Positions 35,563 through 42,010 of a stretch of 64,000 bases of DNA are shown piece by piece (the stretch's first letter is position 1; each line of letters opens with the position of its first letter). The notes under the pieces were generated by a model. That model was given only the letters and a program-made list of their open reading frames with translations. It was not told the origin of the DNA and searched no databases. A program made the translations under genes and the position numbers. Source of the DNA: Terriglobia bacterium (GTDB lineage: Bacteria; Acidobacteriota; Terriglobia; Acidiferrales; UBA7541); assembly GCA_020072785.1 (NCBI GenBank), contig JAIQGG010000002.1, positions 620,001 through 684,000 on the forward strand, in the 5' to 3' direction.

Positions 35563-36937
35563 TTTTCCGCTCGTCGCGCTCATCTTCCTGCTGGCAGCCG
35601 TTTCTGCCCACGCCCAGACGCCTGCGCCCAAGCCTCGCGCGCGCGACCTCGGCGTTCCCTTCGACGGCGCCCCCGGCCCGCTCAACGCCATCACCGACGT
35701 CTCCGGCGTCACTGTCGGCCACACCACGCTCATTTCCGGGGAAGGGAAGCTGCAGGTCGGCCAGGGCCCCGTGCGCACCGGCGTCACCGCCGTTCTCCCC
35801 CGCGGCAAAGACACCATGATGAATCCCGTTTTCGCCGGATGGTTCTCCCAGAACGGCAATGGCGAAATGACCGGCACCACCTGGATCGAGGAATCCGGCT
35901 TCCTCGAAGGTCCGGTAATGATTACCAATACCCACAGTGTCGGCCTCGTCCGCGACGCCGTCATCCAGTGGCGCGTCGCCCACGGCCAGCACGACCCCAC
36001 TGGTTACTGGTGGTCGCTCCCCGTCGTCGCCGAGACCTGGGACGGCTGGCTCAACGACATCAACGGCTTTCACGTCAAGCCCGAGGATGCTTTCCACGCC
36101 ATCGATTCCGCCAGCTCCGGCCCCGTCGCCGAAGGCAACGTCGGCGGCGGCACCGGTATGGTCTGCAACGAATTCAAGGGTGGCATCGGCACCTCCTCGC
36201 GCAAGCTCGCAGCGAAAGACGGCGGCTACACCGTCGGCGTCCTCGTGCAGTGCAACTACGGCGTTCGCCCCAACCTGCGCATCGCCGGCGTCCCCGTGGG
36301 GAAAGAAATTCCAGAGGACCCCGCCTACGCCTCCGCCCATTTCGACGAACTCGACCGCGGCTCCATCATCGTCGTCGTCGCCACCGATGCCCCGCTCCTC
36401 CCGCACCAGCTCAAGCGCCTCGCCCGCCGCGTCTCTCTCGGGCTCGGCCGCAACGGCAGCATCTCCGGCAATGGCTCCGGCGACATCTTCATCGCCTTCT
36501 CCACCGCCAATCCCGGCGCCGTCAAGTCCGCGGGCCTCGCCACCCTCACCATGCTCCCCAACGACCGCATCGATCCCCTCTTCCAGGCCACCGTCCAGGC
36601 CGTCGAGGAAGCCGTCGTCAACGCCATGGTCGCCGCCGAAACCATGACCGGCATCGATAACCACCGCGTCATCGCCCTCCCCCACGACAACGTAGCCAGT
36701 GCACCGGGCCCGCCGCCCCAGCACACCCGATTCGCGCGCCCCGACACATCCGCACTCCATGCGCATGTCATCCTGAAGCCCCGATGCTTTGTATCGGGGC
36801 CGATCGCAGATTCCGGCCCGGTCGGAAAGGATCTCAACTGTCAGTGTCTGCAATACTTGGCGTTGCGGTTCTTCGGGTGCTTCCCTCGTTCTGCATGTTC
36901 GCCCGGACTCATTCCGGGGACGCTCCGACTTCGATAG
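35543..36937 (+). CDS. Exported P1 (DmpA/BapA-type) self-processing aminopeptidase with aberrant C-terminus
   Basis: A 464-residue precursor. Signal peptide MKNLRANFPLVALIFLLAAV to AHAQ, then the P1 fold. The autoproteolysis site is expected at Gly311-Ser312 in NGSGDIFIAFS, which frees Ser312 as the N-terminal nucleophile. Family members act on short peptides, including beta-peptides and D-amino acid substrates. ATG 35543 lies 20 bases inside the M28 gene, so the two are coupled. Recognisable P1 sequence ends near residue 385 (IALPHDN). The following roughly 79 residues are unlike the family and read through a dispersed intergenic repeat (36767-36838), so the original C-terminus seems to have been lost or overwritten. 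Confidence 0.88.
   Translation: MKNLRANFPLVALIFLLAAVSAHAQTPAPKPRARDLGVPFDGAPGPLNAITDVSGVTVGHTTLISGEGKLQVGQGPVRTGVTAVLPRGKDTMMNPVFAGWFSQNGNGEMTGTTWIEESGFLEGPVMITNTHSVGLVRDAVIQWRVAHGQHDPTGYWWSLPVVAETWDGWLNDINGFHVKPEDAFHAIDSASSGPVAEGNVGGGTGMVCNEFKGGIGTSSRKLAAKDGGYTVGVLVQCNYGVRPNLRIAGVPVGKEIPEDPAYASAHFDELDRGSIIVVVATDAPLLPHQLKRLARRVSLGLGRNGSISGNGSGDIFIAFSTANPGAVKSAGLATLTMLPNDRIDPLFQATVQAVEEAVVNAMVAAETMTGIDNHRVIALPHDNVASAPGPPPQHTRFARPDTSALHAHVILKPRCFVSGPIADSGPVGKDLNCQCLQYLALRFFGCFPRSACSPGLIPGTLRLR
36767..36838. repeat. Dispersed repeat with nested palindrome inside the P1 peptidase tail
   Basis: The outer sequence GTCATCCTGA (36767-36776) and AAGGATCTCAAC (36827-36838) matches the uninterrupted repeat at 57449-57479. 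The interior holds the hairpin GCCCCGAT/ATCGGGGC (36778-36785, 36793-36800) and GATTCCGGCCCGGTCGGAAAGG, nearly the same as the insert at 54967-55035. It therefore looks like one dispersed element carrying another. Confidence 0.65.
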
Positions 36938-37517
36938 CCCGCACGATGAAACGCTTCGGCGCGGGACCAACATAGTCAAACGGGAAGCACGTGATCAGAG
37001 TCAGCTCCCGCCGGTTCGACGGCCGTAAGACCTCCGTGTTTGTGGGTGGGACGACTTCAGTTGATTCCACTCGATACCGATAGGACCCGCTGCTGGTCTC
37101 CAGAGTGATGACGTCTCCAGTTCGAATCTGATGCAAGGGACGGAAGAAGGTGTCCCGATGTCCGGCGAGGGCGACGTTGCCCCATTCCCCCGGCATGGGT
37201 GTTTCGGGGAGATGCCCAACCCCTCGCCGCAGGATTCCGGGCGAATCGCCGTGAAGAACGATGGCTCGAATCCCCACACTCGGTATTTCAATCTGGCCCA
37301 CAGCCTCGCCGATGGTTCGCAGGTGTGGTTCTGCCAGCGGAACATGAAGTTTGAACTTGCGTAACTCGATCGCCTGATAAACTTGCGCGTCCAGAAGGAC
37401 ATACCCGGCGTAACTGGCGGCGAGAACGCCCGTCAAAAGAAAAAAGTAGGACGCCCAGCAAAGACCGATGGAAATCAATCTGCGCGATGCTGAGGGCGTG
37501 CGCCGGGTGGCATTCAT
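36909..37517 (-). CDS. Class D-like sortase
   Basis: A 202-residue membrane-anchored transpeptidase. One N-terminal hydrophobic helix (about 14-42) is followed by the sortase barrel. The catalytic set is visible: His120 in ALAGHRDTFF, Cys177 in LTLITCFPF and Arg189 in PKRFIVRA. Sortases cut LPxTG-type motifs and join the product to an amine acceptor. They are common in Gram-positives and sparse in diderms. It overlaps the VWA gene stop by four bases (ATGA), and an LPKTG protein is encoded at the head of the same unit, so it probably serves that substrate. Its 3' end overlaps the tail of the convergent P1 peptidase gene by 29 bases. Confidence 0.9.
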   Translation of the reverse strand: MNATRRTPSASRRLISIGLCWASYFFLLTGVLAASYAGYVLLDAQVYQAIELRKFKLHVPLAEPHLRTIGEAVGQIEIPSVGIRAIVLHGDSPGILRRGVGHLPETPMPGEWGNVALAGHRDTFFRPLHQIRTGDVITLETSSGSYRYRVESTEVVPPTNTEVLRPSNRRELTLITCFPFDYVGPAPKRFIVRAIEVGASPE

Positions 37518-38518
37518 CGCCGCTCTCCATTGGGTTGGGTCGGCAGCGCTTTTTCCGCCGGTAGGGAATAGCCGGCTCGTGTCCGCACCCGCACCTTGCC
37601 GCGGCCCGGAGCACTTACCCGCACCGTGACCTTCCGGAAGGCATCGCCTTTGATTCTCTTCTCGGGCGCAAACCCCAGCGTGTATTGTTCGCGGAGATCG
37701 CGGGCGATTTCTTTGGCAATCTCGGAGATGCTCTCCCCGGCGCGCGGAAAGAAGGCAATCCCGCCGGTGTCTTTGCAGAGCCTTTCGAGCACCCGCGGGT
37801 TCTCCTCTTCTACGGAGTTCCCCGCCAGGGCGATCGAATAAATCACTGCATGCGCTTGCCTTGCCAGGGCTAGGACGTCCCCATATTTATAATGGCTGGC
37901 ATTATCCCCGCCATCACTCACCAGGATGAGCGCTTTCTTTTCATGCTTGCCAAGTTCTAAGTGCTTCAACCCTGCGGCCACCGCGTCATACAGCGCGGTC
38001 CGGCCCCGGGCCGAAACCGCTGCGACTGCTTTTTCGAGGACTTTTGCATCGCTCGTGAAGGCTTTTCCGTCGAGCAATTCGATGGATACCGTATCGCCAA
38101 AATCCACCACGAACATCTCGTCTTCGGGATTACTCGAATGCGCAAAAGTGGTTACCGCGGTGATCACATCGGGCAGCTTGGGACGCATGCTCCGGCTGTG
38201 GTCCACGAGCAAGCCCACGGTCACTGGAGTATCTTCCTCCACGAACAATGTGATTCTCTGAAGTCTTCCCTTTTCGTAAACCTGAAAATTCGGCTCCTGC
38301 AACCCGGAGACAAACACGCCTTTCTCATCTGTCACGCTTACGGGAAGAACGACGAGATCTGTGCGGACCGTGATCTTGGCCTGCTCCGGAACCCGCGGCG
38401 CAGAAAGCGTTTGCGCGGACCGCAAATCGGCGGAGAACCAGATGGCGCATAGAAGCGCGGACAGCAGGCACATCCCGCCGCGCAGTCCGGGGCGTCGCGA
38501 TCCCTGGAGAGCATTCAT
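37514..38518 (-). CDS. Exported VWA-domain protein (Acidobacteria-type VWFA)
   Basis: A 334-residue protein with an N-terminal signal or anchor (about 10-35), a beta-rich region beginning TVRTDLVVLPVSVTDEKGVFV, and a von Willebrand A domain with the metal site DHSRSMR and SDGGDN. The overall shape matches the VWFA-related family that is expanded in Acidobacteria. VWA domains bind protein partners through a divalent metal. The C-terminal 60 residues (EQYTLGFAPEKRI to RTRAGYSLP) complete the family pattern. ATG 38518 has GGAGG seven bases upstream. It is encoded between the LPKTG protein and the sortase, so a surface or periplasmic assembly role is likely (inference). Confidence 0.88.
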   Translation of the reverse strand: MNALQGSRRPGLRGGMCLLSALLCAIWFSADLRSAQTLSAPRVPEQAKITVRTDLVVLPVSVTDEKGVFVSGLQEPNFQVYEKGRLQRITLFVEEDTPVTVGLLVDHSRSMRPKLPDVITAVTTFAHSSNPEDEMFVVDFGDTVSIELLDGKAFTSDAKVLEKAVAAVSARGRTALYDAVAAGLKHLELGKHEKKALILVSDGGDNASHYKYGDVLALARQAHAVIYSIALAGNSVEEENPRVLERLCKDTGGIAFFPRAGESISEIAKEIARDLREQYTLGFAPEKRIKGDAFRKVTVRVSAPGRGKVRVRTRAGYSLPAEKALPTQPNGERR

Positions 38519-38588
38519 AATGAGACCTCCCCGGGCCGCGGCGGGCAGCAATTCCATCAGGTCCGCGGCCCGAAGGGCCTGCTTCAGT

Positions 38589-39284
38589 CTAAGAGAGTTG
38601 TTTTGCCAGCAGCCTCAGGCCGAAGGCTGCGCCGATGGAGATTGCGCTCAGCAGGCCGATCAGTGGAATCGCGCTGCCGGTCTTCGGCAACTCCTTAGCC
38701 GCTGTCACCGGCGCCAGTGCCGGACTCGGTGCCTGCGCGGCCTGCAACGGAATGGTCTGAATCGCTTCGGCTATCGGCTTTTCTTTCCTTTCCGGCGTTA
38801 TCGCAATGAGCGGAACAGTGGTCAGAGTACTTTCCGTGGGTTCCACGGTCTCTGCGGGCACGACTTCCTTCGATGCCTCGGCCAGTTGGATAGCCCGGGC
38901 CTTCGGATATACGAATTCCTGCCCGAAATTGTCCCCTGGATAAATCCAGGCTTTTAGGGCAACGGGTGATTCGCCCGGCATCTCACGGAACTTGATCACC
39001 GTCTCACCGGTTGGTACCAGCCGGTAATTGGAAATCGCAAGGACTGTCGTAACCAGTTGTGTTTCGTCTTCGTTCCAGATCTGCACGATATGCCGGTTCG
39101 AAGAGGAGTCAAACAGCTTGAACACATAGGTCCCCGCCGGAAGCACTCTTCCGGGGACCTCAGTTGGTTGATCAAAGGTAAAAGTGGTTCTCTTGGTCCA
39201 TTGGTCTGCTTGCGCTGGATTGAAAAACATGCCAGCAAGCAGAGAAAGCATAAGCCCAACAAATACTGCCTTAAGGAAACGCAT
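38589..39284 (-). CDS. Exported protein with LPKTG sortase signal
   Basis: A 231-residue protein: signal peptide (MRFLKAVFVGLMLSLLAGMF, cleavage near AQA before DQW) and a beta-rich domain (about 25-130, TFTFDQPTEVPGRVLPAGTYVFKL). A Pro/Thr/Glu/Ala-rich stalk (about 130-197) precedes LPKTG at 199-203, a hydrophobic helix and a short tail AKQLS. The last three parts form a classical cell-wall sorting signal, unexpected in a diderm. I do not recognise the N-terminal domain beyond similarity to short exported Acidobacteria proteins. ATG 39284 follows AGGAGA; the ORF extends 15 codons further without signal features. It heads the LPKTG-VWA-sortase unit; a GGCCC/GGGCC hairpin lies in the 70-base gap to the VWA gene. 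Confidence 0.85.
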   Translation of the reverse strand: MRFLKAVFVGLMLSLLAGMFFNPAQADQWTKRTTFTFDQPTEVPGRVLPAGTYVFKLFDSSSNRHIVQIWNEDETQLVTTVLAISNYRLVPTGETVIKFREMPGESPVALKAWIYPGDNFGQEFVYPKARAIQLAEASKEVVPAETVEPTESTLTTVPLIAITPERKEKPIAEAIQTIPLQAAQAPSPALAPVTAAKELPKTGSAIPLIGLLSAISIGAAFGLRLLAKQLS

Positions 39285-39688
39285 AGGTAATTTCTCCTGG
39301 AACGCCGGACCTTGACGATCACTGGTCACTCAGCGGTAGCACCTGATGCGAGCACTCCGGTCACACACGCCCTCGTCACAACGTCCGGTCTTTGCTCCTG
39401 CTTTATTTATATCCTTTGCAATGGATAAATCTGTGATCTCTGTCACGCTTCGATGTGCCGCCACGAATGCCCAAAAGTCTTGCTGTTTCTATTTCTTGGA
39501 AGTAAAGGGATCCCTGGCATAAGGTCCGAGAGGAAAGGATTGGGGCTCGGCCTTGCCTGGCTGCCCGCGGCAGTCCGGGTCAGAAGTGGATTTATCGGCA
39601 GTTCTCTCTTCGATAGAGCTGTCGTCCATATGGGCGCTCTCTTTAGGACGCGGCCTGGCAACCCCGGCAGAGGAGGTATCCCGCTGTC
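39285..39688. promoter_or_regulatory. 404-base divergent control region with CRP-like palindrome
   Basis: TGTGA-TCTCTG-TCACG at 39432-39447 matches the CRP/FNR-family pattern TGTGA-N6-TCACA in nine of ten core positions. An AT-rich stretch (about 39402-39431), with TATAAA on the minus strand, lies between it and the LPKTG gene, compatible with activation of that gene. For the plus-strand gene at 39689 an AGGAGG is present at about 39671. No gene is seen in the gap. Confidence 0.4.
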
Positions 39689-40345: not shown

Positions 40346-40969
40346 ATGCACGACCATGATCACAGCCACCAGGCGGTTCCTTCCGACCCTGCCTTGCGCG
40401 TCAAGGCCCTCGAATCGCTGTTGGTCGAAAAGAAGCTGGTCGATCGCGCAGCTCTCGACGCGTTGATCGATACCTACGAGCACAAGGTCGGTCCGCGTAA
40501 CGGCGCGCGCGTGGTCGCGCGGGCCTGGGTGAATCCCGCCTACAAGCAGCGCCTGCTGACCGACGCCGACGCCGCCATCGCGGAGCTCGGCTATGGCGGC
40601 TTGCAGGGCGAGCACATGGTGGTGGTCGAGAATACCCCCAAGCTGCACAACCTGGTCGTTTGCACGCTGTGCTCCTGTTATCCCTGGGCGGTCCTTGGTC
40701 TCCCGCCGGTCTGGTACAAGTCCGCGCCCTATCGCTCCCGCTCGGTGATCGACCCGCGTGGCGTGTTGCGCGAATTCGGCCTGGAGCTGTCGCCGCAGGT
40801 CGAGGTTCGCGTTTGGGACAGCACCGCCGAGGTGCGCTACCTCGTCTTGCCCGAGCGGCCCTCCGGCACGGAACAACTCAGCGAGGAGGCCCTCGCCGCC
40901 TTGGTCACCCGCGATTCGATGATTGGCGTGGCCAGGCTCATGCCCCCGGCTCAGGGAGGCCGCTCATGA
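40346..40969 (+). CDS. nthA: Nitrile hydratase alpha subunit, cobalt type
   Basis: A 207-residue subunit that binds the active-site metal. The claw motif VCTLCSC (Cys106, Cys109, Ser110, Cys111) is present; Thr after the first Cys marks the cobalt class, whereas iron enzymes have Ser. The two later cysteines are normally oxidised to sulfinic and sulfenic acid. The following [15 protein letters not shown] segment is canonical. The enzyme hydrates nitriles to amides in the cytoplasm. A His-rich N-terminus (MHDHDHSHQ) could help metal delivery. Its stop overlaps the beta-subunit start (ATGA). No amidase gene is in this window, so the amide product must be handled elsewhere. Confidence 0.96.
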
Positions 40970-41625
40970 ATGGCGTGCATGACATGGGCGGCATGCACGG
41001 CATGGGCCCGATCCAATGCGAAAAAAACGAACCCGTGTTCCATGCGCGTTGGGAAGCCCGCACGTTCGCGTTGTTGTTCGCGATGGGTGCCTGGGGTAAG
41101 TGGCCGCTGGACGCCCTCCGGCACCAGATTGAGCTGATCCCCCCGGCAGAATATTTGCGCGTGTCCTACTACGAGAAATGGATTACCGCATTGGTCGAGC
41201 TAATGGTCAAGGCCGGCCTGGTGACGCGGGCGGAGGCCGAAAGCGGGACGCTGGCATTTGGTTCGCCCCGGTTGAGCCCGGCGCTCTCCGCCGATCAGGT
41301 GCCCCAAATGGTCGCGAGCGGCGGACCCACGAATCGCAACGTCCCGGCAGTTCCGCGCTTCCGGGCCGGCCAGCGCGTCCGCGCCCGCAACATGCATCCG
41401 GTCGGCCACACTCGCCTGCCGCGCTATGCCCGAGGAAAGCTGGGCACCCTTGCTCGGGACTATGGCGTCTTCGTTTTTCCGGACACCAACGCTCATGACC
41501 TCGGCGAGAAGCCCCAGCATCTCTACTCGGTGCGCTTCGAAGCGCGCGAGTTGTGGGGCGAGCAGGCTGCGCCGCACGACGCTGTCTATGTTGATCTCTG
41601 GGATGACTACCTTGAGCCAGCCTGA
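40966..41625 (+). CDS. nthB: Nitrile hydratase beta subunit
   Basis: A 219-residue subunit with the family start [15 protein letters not shown], the helical N-terminal domain ([22 protein letters not shown]), a linker and the SH3-like C-terminal domain ([29 protein letters not shown] to [11 protein letters not shown]). It completes the active site of the alpha-beta dimer. Both the four-base overlap with the alpha gene and the GGGAGG before it support coupled translation. The next gene starts 23 bases before its stop. The gene order alpha-beta-accessory differs from the beta-alpha-accessory order of the Rhodococcus rhodochrous cobalt enzymes. Confidence 0.95.
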
Positions 41626-42010
41626 CCCCATTCGCGAGCCCGAGAACCTGGCGGCCCTGCCGCGCCTCCCGCGCGATGCGGGCGGGCCGGTCTTTGCCGA
41701 ACCCTGGCAGGCCCAGGCCTTCTCACTGGCCGTCTCGCTCTCCGCGCAAGGGCATTTCACCTGGAAGGAGTGGGCGGCCGCGCTCGCGGACGAACTCAAG
41801 GCCGCCGCCAGTCGCGGCGAGCCCGATGACGGCTCGCGCTACTACCACCACTGGCTGGCCGCTCTCGAGCGTCTGGTCACGGTCAAGGGCTTGTCCAATC
41901 CGGCCGCGCTGCTGGCGCGCAAGGAGGCTTGGGCCGAAGCCTACCGCCGCACCCCCCACGGGAAGCCCGTCGAGTTGAGCGCCGCCTCTAGCGGACAAAA
42001 GCGCCCTTGA
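41603..42010 (+). CDS. Nitrile hydratase accessory protein (p14K/NhlE-like cobalt chaperone)
   Basis: A 135-residue protein related to the N-terminal domain of the beta subunit (VFAEPWQAQAFSLAVSLSAQGHFTWKEWAAAL, then HHWLAALERLVTVKGL). In cobalt nitrile hydratases the matching protein escorts the alpha subunit and helps insert and oxidise the cobalt centre by subunit swapping. I chose ATG 41603, which overlaps the beta gene by 23 bases; the open frame further upstream is antisense-like. It is the last gene of the operon; the convergent GcvT-like gene ends 35 bases beyond. Confidence 0.85.
   Translation: MTTLSQPDPIREPENLAALPRLPRDAGGPVFAEPWQAQAFSLAVSLSAQGHFTWKEWAAALADELKAAASRGEPDDGSRYYHHWLAALERLVTVKGLSNPAALLARKEAWAEAYRRTPHGKPVELSAASSGQKRP

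What the first reader, a model, noticed from the sequence alone, without database searches (positions are those of the whole stretch)
36909..39284. Sortase, LPKTG substrate and VWA protein as a self-contained unit in a diderm
Class D-like sortase with His120, Cys177 and Arg189, an exported protein with a textbook LPKTG-helix-basic tail, and a VWA protein form one operon with an overlapping stop/start. A Gram-negative-type cell has no thick wall to anchor to, so the acceptor amine and the surface outcome are open questions; a pilus-like or lipoprotein-like use is possible.
Basis: partly seen in the sequence, partly recalled or inferred. Interest (0 to 1): 0.7.

Follow-up and report, generated by a model that had tools for sequence, protein, structure and literature searches.

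The report
Acidobacterial sortase with dedicated anchored substrate
A soil bacterium with two membranes carries a small gene set that looks able to cut an exported protein at a C-terminal tag and join it covalently to something in the cell envelope, a job usually credited to single-membrane bacteria; the same set recurs across its phylum, so it is a real, conserved system whose attachment point is still unknown.

Summary
On the minus strand lie a secreted protein ending LPKTGS-helix-basic, a von Willebrand A (VWA) protein and a sortase with His120/Cys177/Arg189, the last two overlapping by ATGA. The genome is a diderm acidobacterium (LptD present) with one sortase, one such tail and 15 hits to the VWA family. 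The order substrate-VWA-sortase recurs across Acidobacteriota: 79 of 79 testable best-matching sortase loci have a tailed protein upstream, 62 of 80 a VWA gene, and cassette VWAs group together in a tree. In 297 phylum genomes the tail occurs in 48 of 60 with the sortase and 0 of 237 without. The usual motif is LPxTAS; LPKTGS is a minority form. The sortase is closest to class D (C. perfringens SrtD, B. anthracis SrtC), whose characterised member cuts LPNTA and links to diaminopimelate in peptidoglycan. Best reading: an inner-membrane, periplasm-facing sortase that tethers a small beta-domain protein to the thin peptidoglycan. A pilus-like use is not favoured: the tempting EFVYPK lysine is replaced by Arg, His, Glu or Gln in 14 of 98 tailed homologues. 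The acceptor is inferred. New variant of a known kind.

The parts
38589..39284 (-). Sorting substrate: signal peptide (about 1-26), beta-rich domain (31-126), short helix (128-138), disordered Pro/Ala-rich linker (about 177-203), LPKTGS motif and C-terminal hydrophobic helix (206-230) with basic end
   Evidence: translation; AlphaFold2 model; alignment of 35 relatives; tail model hit E 2.6e-13
38589..38693 (-). C-terminal sorting signal ELPKTGSAIPLIGLLSAISIGAAFGLRLLAKQLS plus stop
37514..38518 (-). Secreted VWA protein (TIGR03436 family) with a DxSxS metal site (DHSRS); ORF opens at 38557, ATG at 38518 is the likelier start
   Evidence: closest relatives align from the matching codon; grouped with other cassette VWAs in a tree
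36909..37517 (-). Class D-like sortase: N-terminal membrane helix (9-57), catalytic domain 72-196, His120/Cys177/Arg189
37514..37517 (-). ATGA overlap of VWA stop and sortase start
   Evidence: same overlap in 40 of 62 VWA-bearing relatives
39432..39447 (-). CRP-like palindrome (TGTGA-N6-TCACA, one mismatch) about 150 bp upstream of the operon, with TATAAAT about 20 bp downstream of it
   Evidence: conserved in the two closest relatives; chance level in this window alone is not negligible; enriched upstream of cassettes

Best explanation
It is a dedicated sorting cassette of a diderm. The substrate is exported by its signal peptide and held in the inner membrane by its C-terminal helix, so that LPKTGS faces the periplasm. 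The sortase, anchored by its own N-terminal helix and facing the same way, cuts between Thr and Gly (Ala in most relatives) through Cys177 with His120 and Arg189, and hands the acyl-linked protein to an amine. The most likely amine is the side-chain amino group of diaminopimelate in peptidoglycan precursors, so the product is a small beta-domain protein tethered by a flexible Pro/Ala-rich linker to the thin periplasmic wall. The co-inherited VWA protein is probably a secreted helper or binding partner of the anchored domain. Shown here: the genes, catalytic residues, predicted fold of the enzyme, conserved tail, linkage, co-occurrence, diderm marker. Inferred: cleavage, acceptor, location, VWA role.
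For: Tail and sortase co-occur: 48 of 60 sortase-bearing genomes and 0 of 237 others; the first count, with the substrate model, was 44/60 and 0/237, Fisher 1.8e-39. 48 of 61 tailed proteins lie within 3 kb of a sortase. All 79 testable loci have [LMV]PxT[AGS], with Ser next in 74. Closest solved structures by sequence are 2ln7 and 4d70, both class D; by fold 4d70. The characterised class D enzyme, B. anthracis SrtC, cuts LPNTA between T and A and uses m-diaminopimelate (PMC3297441); that SrtC is a class D enzyme is from general knowledge. LPxTA is the majority motif here. Elsewhere in the phylum the same tail sits on unrelated domains, including PG_binding_1 next to a sortase (L237) and a protein with a lipoprotein signal (L243), which fits envelope/wall tethering as the shared outcome. 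LptD marks an outer membrane.
Against: No biochemical data; the acceptor rests on homology with a monoderm enzyme. Peptidoglycan type of this organism was not tested. One sortase-adjacent homologue (L053) truly lacks a tail. The tail models were trained on sortase neighbours and the genomes share ancestry, so the p-value overstates independence. Whether the mature protein stays in the periplasm or reaches the surface is unknown.
Confidence: 0.58

Rival explanations
1. Pilus-like polymer: the sortase joins the Thr of one substrate to the lysine of the EFVYPK motif of the next, as pilin sortases do with YPKN, giving a covalent fibre.
For: EFVYPK resembles the YPKN pilin motif (PMC3297441). The Lys is present in 84 of 98 tailed homologues with a readable motif, and in only 3 of 15 readable tail-less ones.
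Against: In 14 of 98 tailed homologues the Lys is Arg, His, Glu or Gln, several directly next to a sortase (e.g. L090, L128, L150). Tail-less homologues often end there, so the contrast partly reflects the domain boundary. The enzyme is class D-like, not class C. Cassettes have one sortase and usually one substrate, and other tailed proteins in the phylum lack the motif.
Confidence: 0.1
2. The amine acceptor is not peptidoglycan but an envelope lipid or polysaccharide, or water, so the enzyme lipidates or simply releases the substrate, in the manner of rhombosortase/GlyGly-CTERM systems of other Gram-negatives.
For: Diderms use other C-terminal sorting systems (PMC3237569; PMC6219818, found). 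Nothing here tests the acceptor.
Against: The enzyme is a true sortase by sequence and predicted fold, and characterised sortases use peptidoglycan or protein amines; no precedent for a lipid amine with this enzyme class is known to me.
Confidence: 0.18
3. The VWA protein is itself the covalent acceptor: the sortase cross-links the substrate to a lysine of the VWA protein.
For: Cassette VWAs form essentially one group apart from most other genomic VWAs, overlap translationally with the sortase and are co-inherited.
Against: 18 of 80 loci have no VWA nearby, and whole groups keep only substrate and sortase (L052-L054).
Confidence: 0.07
4. Chance neighbours or a decayed relic: the genes are adjacent without shared function.
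For: The VWA family is abundant in this genome (15 hits), and VWA remnants occur in some cassettes (L042, L044, L048).
Against: Conserved order in dozens of loci, purifying selection on all three genes, phylogenetic co-occurrence.
Confidence: 0.02

Closest known systems
Class D sortases: Bacillus anthracis SrtC (PDB 2ln7) and Clostridium perfringens SrtD (PDB 4d70); NCBIfam NF058671 / NF033746
   Same: Best sequence and fold matches; LPxTA-type motif; H/C/R triad; N-terminal membrane anchor.
   Different: Host is a diderm; motif is LPxT[AG]S, not LPNTA/LPxTATN; linked VWA gene and unrelated substrate domain; the window sortase falls just under NCBIfam cut-offs (136.8 vs 140; 128.6 vs 165).
Proteobacterial class GN ('marine') sortase cassettes, TIGR03784
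   Same: Gram-negative, single dedicated sortase encoded next to a single LPXTG-like substrate (PMC3237569).
   Different: TIGR03784 scores 99.8 against a cut-off of 158.25. There the published example is a vault-protein homologue carrying the LPXTG tail; here the VWA protein has no tail and a separate small protein is the substrate.
Sortase-built pili of Gram-positives (class C sortase, YPKN pilin motif)
   Same: YPK-like motif in the substrate; substrate and sortase in one operon.
   Different: Lysine not invariant; sortase not class C by sequence; no second anchoring sortase; no fold match to pilins found.
Braun-type covalent protein-peptidoglycan tethers of Gram-negatives
   Same: Proposed outcome: protein covalently bound to diaminopimelate in a thin periplasmic wall (from general knowledge).
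   Different: Different enzyme family (sortase, not L,D-transpeptidase) and different C-terminal signal; this substrate has no lipobox.

Membership tests
Sortase superfamily (PF04203) | Sortase domain above curated cut-off | tested here: met
   113.2 bits vs 26.6; AlphaFold2 model matches 4d70 at E 1.3e-14, TM 0.82 by target
Sortase superfamily (PF04203) | His/Cys/Arg catalytic residues | tested here: met
   H120, C177, R189 invariant in 17 and 30 sequences
Sortase superfamily (PF04203) | Transpeptidation of a sorting signal | not testable with these tools
   needs enzyme assay
Class D sortase (NF058671, NF033746) | Score above curated cut-offs | tested here: not met
   136.8 vs 140 and 128.6 vs 165 for the window protein; 5 of 10 relatives pass NF058671 only. 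So 'class D-like'
Class D sortase (NF058671, NF033746) | Closest relatives among solved sortases are class D | tested here: met
   2ln7 114.6 bits and 4d70 110.3 bits, next best 87.9
Class D sortase (NF058671, NF033746) | LPxTA-type sorting signal | tested here: met
   about 59 of 79 linked substrates have LPxTA; the window copy has LPKTG
Class D sortase (NF058671, NF033746) | Diaminopimelate as acceptor | not testable with these tools
   known for B. anthracis SrtC (PMC3297441)
Class GN sortase (TIGR03784) | Score above curated cut-off | tested here: not met
   99.8 vs 158.25; 78 to 108 bits in ten relatives
LPXTG cell-wall sorting signal (PF00746/TIGR01167) | Score above curated cut-off | tested here: not met
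   10.7 vs 20 bits for the window protein; 8 of 35 relatives match PF00746 at E 0.01 or better, and some distant substrates exceed 20 bits
LPXTG cell-wall sorting signal (PF00746/TIGR01167) | Motif, hydrophobic helix, basic end at the C-terminus | tested here: met
   sequence, helix 206-230 in the model, conserved in 38 tails
TIGR03436 acidobacterial VWA | Score above curated cut-off | tested here: met
   187 vs 81.25
Sortase-dependent pilin | Invariant pilin-motif lysine | tested here: not met
   Lys in 84 of 98 tailed homologues; R/E/H/Q in 14

The most novel reading that the evidence does not exclude
The sortase polymerises its substrate through the EFVYPK lysine into a covalent fibre in or beyond the periplasm, which would be a sortase-built pilus-like polymer in a Gram-negative bacterium.
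Probability: 0.08. Interest if true: 0.85.

Novelty: new variant of a known kind. Interest (0 to 1): 0.55.

Why it matters
A recent review still describes sortase anchoring as unique to monoderms (PMC10501053, 2023) and only small Gram-negative cassettes have been noted (PMC3237569). Here a sortase with a matching tail is present in about a sixth of sampled Acidobacteriota genomes (48 of 297; the sortase alone in 60), a diderm phylum abundant in soil. If the acceptor is peptidoglycan, it gives these bacteria an independent way to bolt proteins to the thin wall, using a different enzyme from Braun-type attachment, and one that is easily tested because each cassette carries enzyme and substrate together.

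Tried and rejected
Pilin-motif lysine: looked strong in the first 35 sequences, weakened when 98 tailed homologues were read. Fold of the substrate domain: AlphaFold2 model usable (mean pLDDT 77.7), but no PDB match (best E 0.27, best Z 2.9, mostly the C-terminal helix); a weak DUF2911 resemblance (E 0.093 alone, up to 0.00036 in relatives) is only a lead. Class GN membership rejected by score. Rfam: no RNA family in the window. Promoter/terminator scan at chance level. Papers: no study of these acidobacterial cassettes found in the held open-access library; one genome paper merely counts six sortases in Solibacter.

Full report
Observation. The three genes lie on the minus strand in the order substrate (39284-38589), VWA protein (38518 or 38557-37514), sortase (37517-36909). 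The VWA stop and sortase start share ATGA. Flanking genes are unrelated: peptidases M28 and S58 on one side, nitrile hydratase subunits and an aminomethyltransferase on the other, so the unit ends with these three genes. In the two closest relatives the cassette occupies the same place between the S58 peptidase region and the aminomethyltransferase gene. All three genes show dN/dS of 0.18-0.25 against those relatives.

Enzyme. The sortase scores 113 bits to PF04203. NCBIfam puts class D models first (136.8 and 128.6 bits) but just under their cut-offs, ahead of class GN (99.8), E (86.3) and C (76.7); all 30 aligned relatives match these models. A profile of the family hits the two solved class D enzymes first, 2ln7 and 4d70. 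The AlphaFold2 model (mean pLDDT 87.8) matches 4d70 best. His120, Cys177 and Arg189 are invariant.

Substrate. It has a signal peptide, a beta-rich domain, a short helix, a disordered linker and a C-terminal helix. The domain has no solved relative that the searches could find. In its own genome it is single-copy, and a tail model finds no second tailed protein there. The genome has one sortase, 15 TIGR03436 hits, and LptD, an outer-membrane marker.

Conservation. Among 61 related genomes the order substrate-VWA-sortase recurs within and beyond the genus, with minimal substrate-sortase pairs in others. A scan of 84,980 species genomes returned 80 best sortase loci, nearly all labelled Acidobacteriota. 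In 79 of them a tailed protein lies upstream; the eightieth, L099, is cut by its contig end. One parse (L156) picked an inner LPLTG; its true tail is LPHTAS, giving about 59 LPxTA, 11 LPxTG and 9 other forms, with Ser following in most. A VWA gene is near in 62 of 80, with the same 4-base overlap in 40. These 80 were chosen by similarity to the query, so they favour the result. The wider sample is 297 phylum genomes: 60 have the sortase, 44 of these and none of 237 others have a tailed protein by the substrate model, and 48 against none by the tail model.

VWA protein. In a tree of 40 sequences the cassette VWAs form one cluster apart from most of this genome's other VWAs, with one own-genome paralogue next to the cluster and one row, L157, inside it that is itself beside a cassette in divergent orientation. 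The fork uniting the cluster has only moderate support (84/81). The DxSxS metal site is intact in 57 of 62.

What the tail is attached to elsewhere. Across the phylum the same tail sits on unrelated secreted proteins: PG_binding_1 (L237, beside a sortase), DUF4142 (L242), weak DUF5666/CusF-like repeats (L226, L227), Thr/Ser-rich proteins (L148, L149), and one protein with a lipobox (L243). So the signal is a general sorting tag, and the window's genome uses it once.

Pilus question. EFVYPK resembles the YPKN pilin motif (PMC3297441). The lysine is kept in 84 of 98 readable tailed homologues, replaced in 14, and present in 3 of 15 readable tail-less ones. Several replacements are directly beside a sortase. 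The tail-less proteins often end at this point, which explains part of the contrast. This disfavours, without excluding, polymerisation through that lysine.

Mechanism. Shown: genes, residues, predicted fold, tail, linkage, co-occurrence, selection, outer-membrane marker. Inferred from class D precedent (SrtC of B. anthracis cuts LPNTA after Thr and uses diaminopimelate, PMC3297441): cleavage and attachment to peptidoglycan in the periplasm. Unknown: the acceptor, final location, function of the beta-domain and of the VWA protein.

Novelty. The kind of system, a sortase with its substrate, is known, and dedicated Gram-negative cassettes have been described for proteobacterial class GN (PMC3237569). 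What is new here is a class D-like version, with a distinct substrate domain, a co-inherited VWA gene and an LPxT[AG]S signal, spread through a diderm phylum. I found no paper describing it in the open-access library searched, which is not the whole literature.

Noticed in passing
window 39432-39447: CRP-like palindrome upstream of the operon, conserved in the two closest relatives; sites with at most one mismatch lie upstream of 7 of 73 cassettes against 0.7% of background windows. Related genomes are counted separately, so the enrichment is approximate.
   Followed up: partly
L113, L125, L131, L134, L136, L138, L158, L159: In several Bryobacterales-type cassettes a long ORF that reads like a malic enzyme sits between substrate and VWA/sortase; recognised by eye, not tested with a family model.
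   Followed up: no
window 40346-42010: Nitrile hydratase alpha and beta genes between the cassette and the aminomethyltransferase gene are absent at this place in the two closest relatives.
   Followed up: no
L243:3128-3856: A tailed protein with a lipoprotein signal (LAGC) and LPRTGS at the other end, away from any sortase: if both ends are processed it would join a membrane to the sortase acceptor.
   Followed up: no
L086, L102, L106, L149, L150: These sortases pass the NCBIfam cut-off of NF058671, 'LPxTATN-specific', although the substrates beside them carry LPxT[AG]S; the specificity in the name may be over-extended.
   Followed up: partly
L042:6797-7246, L044:6890-7522, L048:4902-5778: VWA genes shortened or broken inside otherwise intact cassettes, suggesting the VWA part can be lost.
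   Followed up: no
L053:7948-8559: A substrate homologue directly beside a sortase with no sorting tail in any frame; another tailed homologue lies elsewhere in that genome (L085).
   Followed up: yes
L098, L120: Records titled Betaproteobacteria and Planctomycetota carry typical acidobacterial cassettes; probably mislabelled metagenome bins.
   Followed up: no
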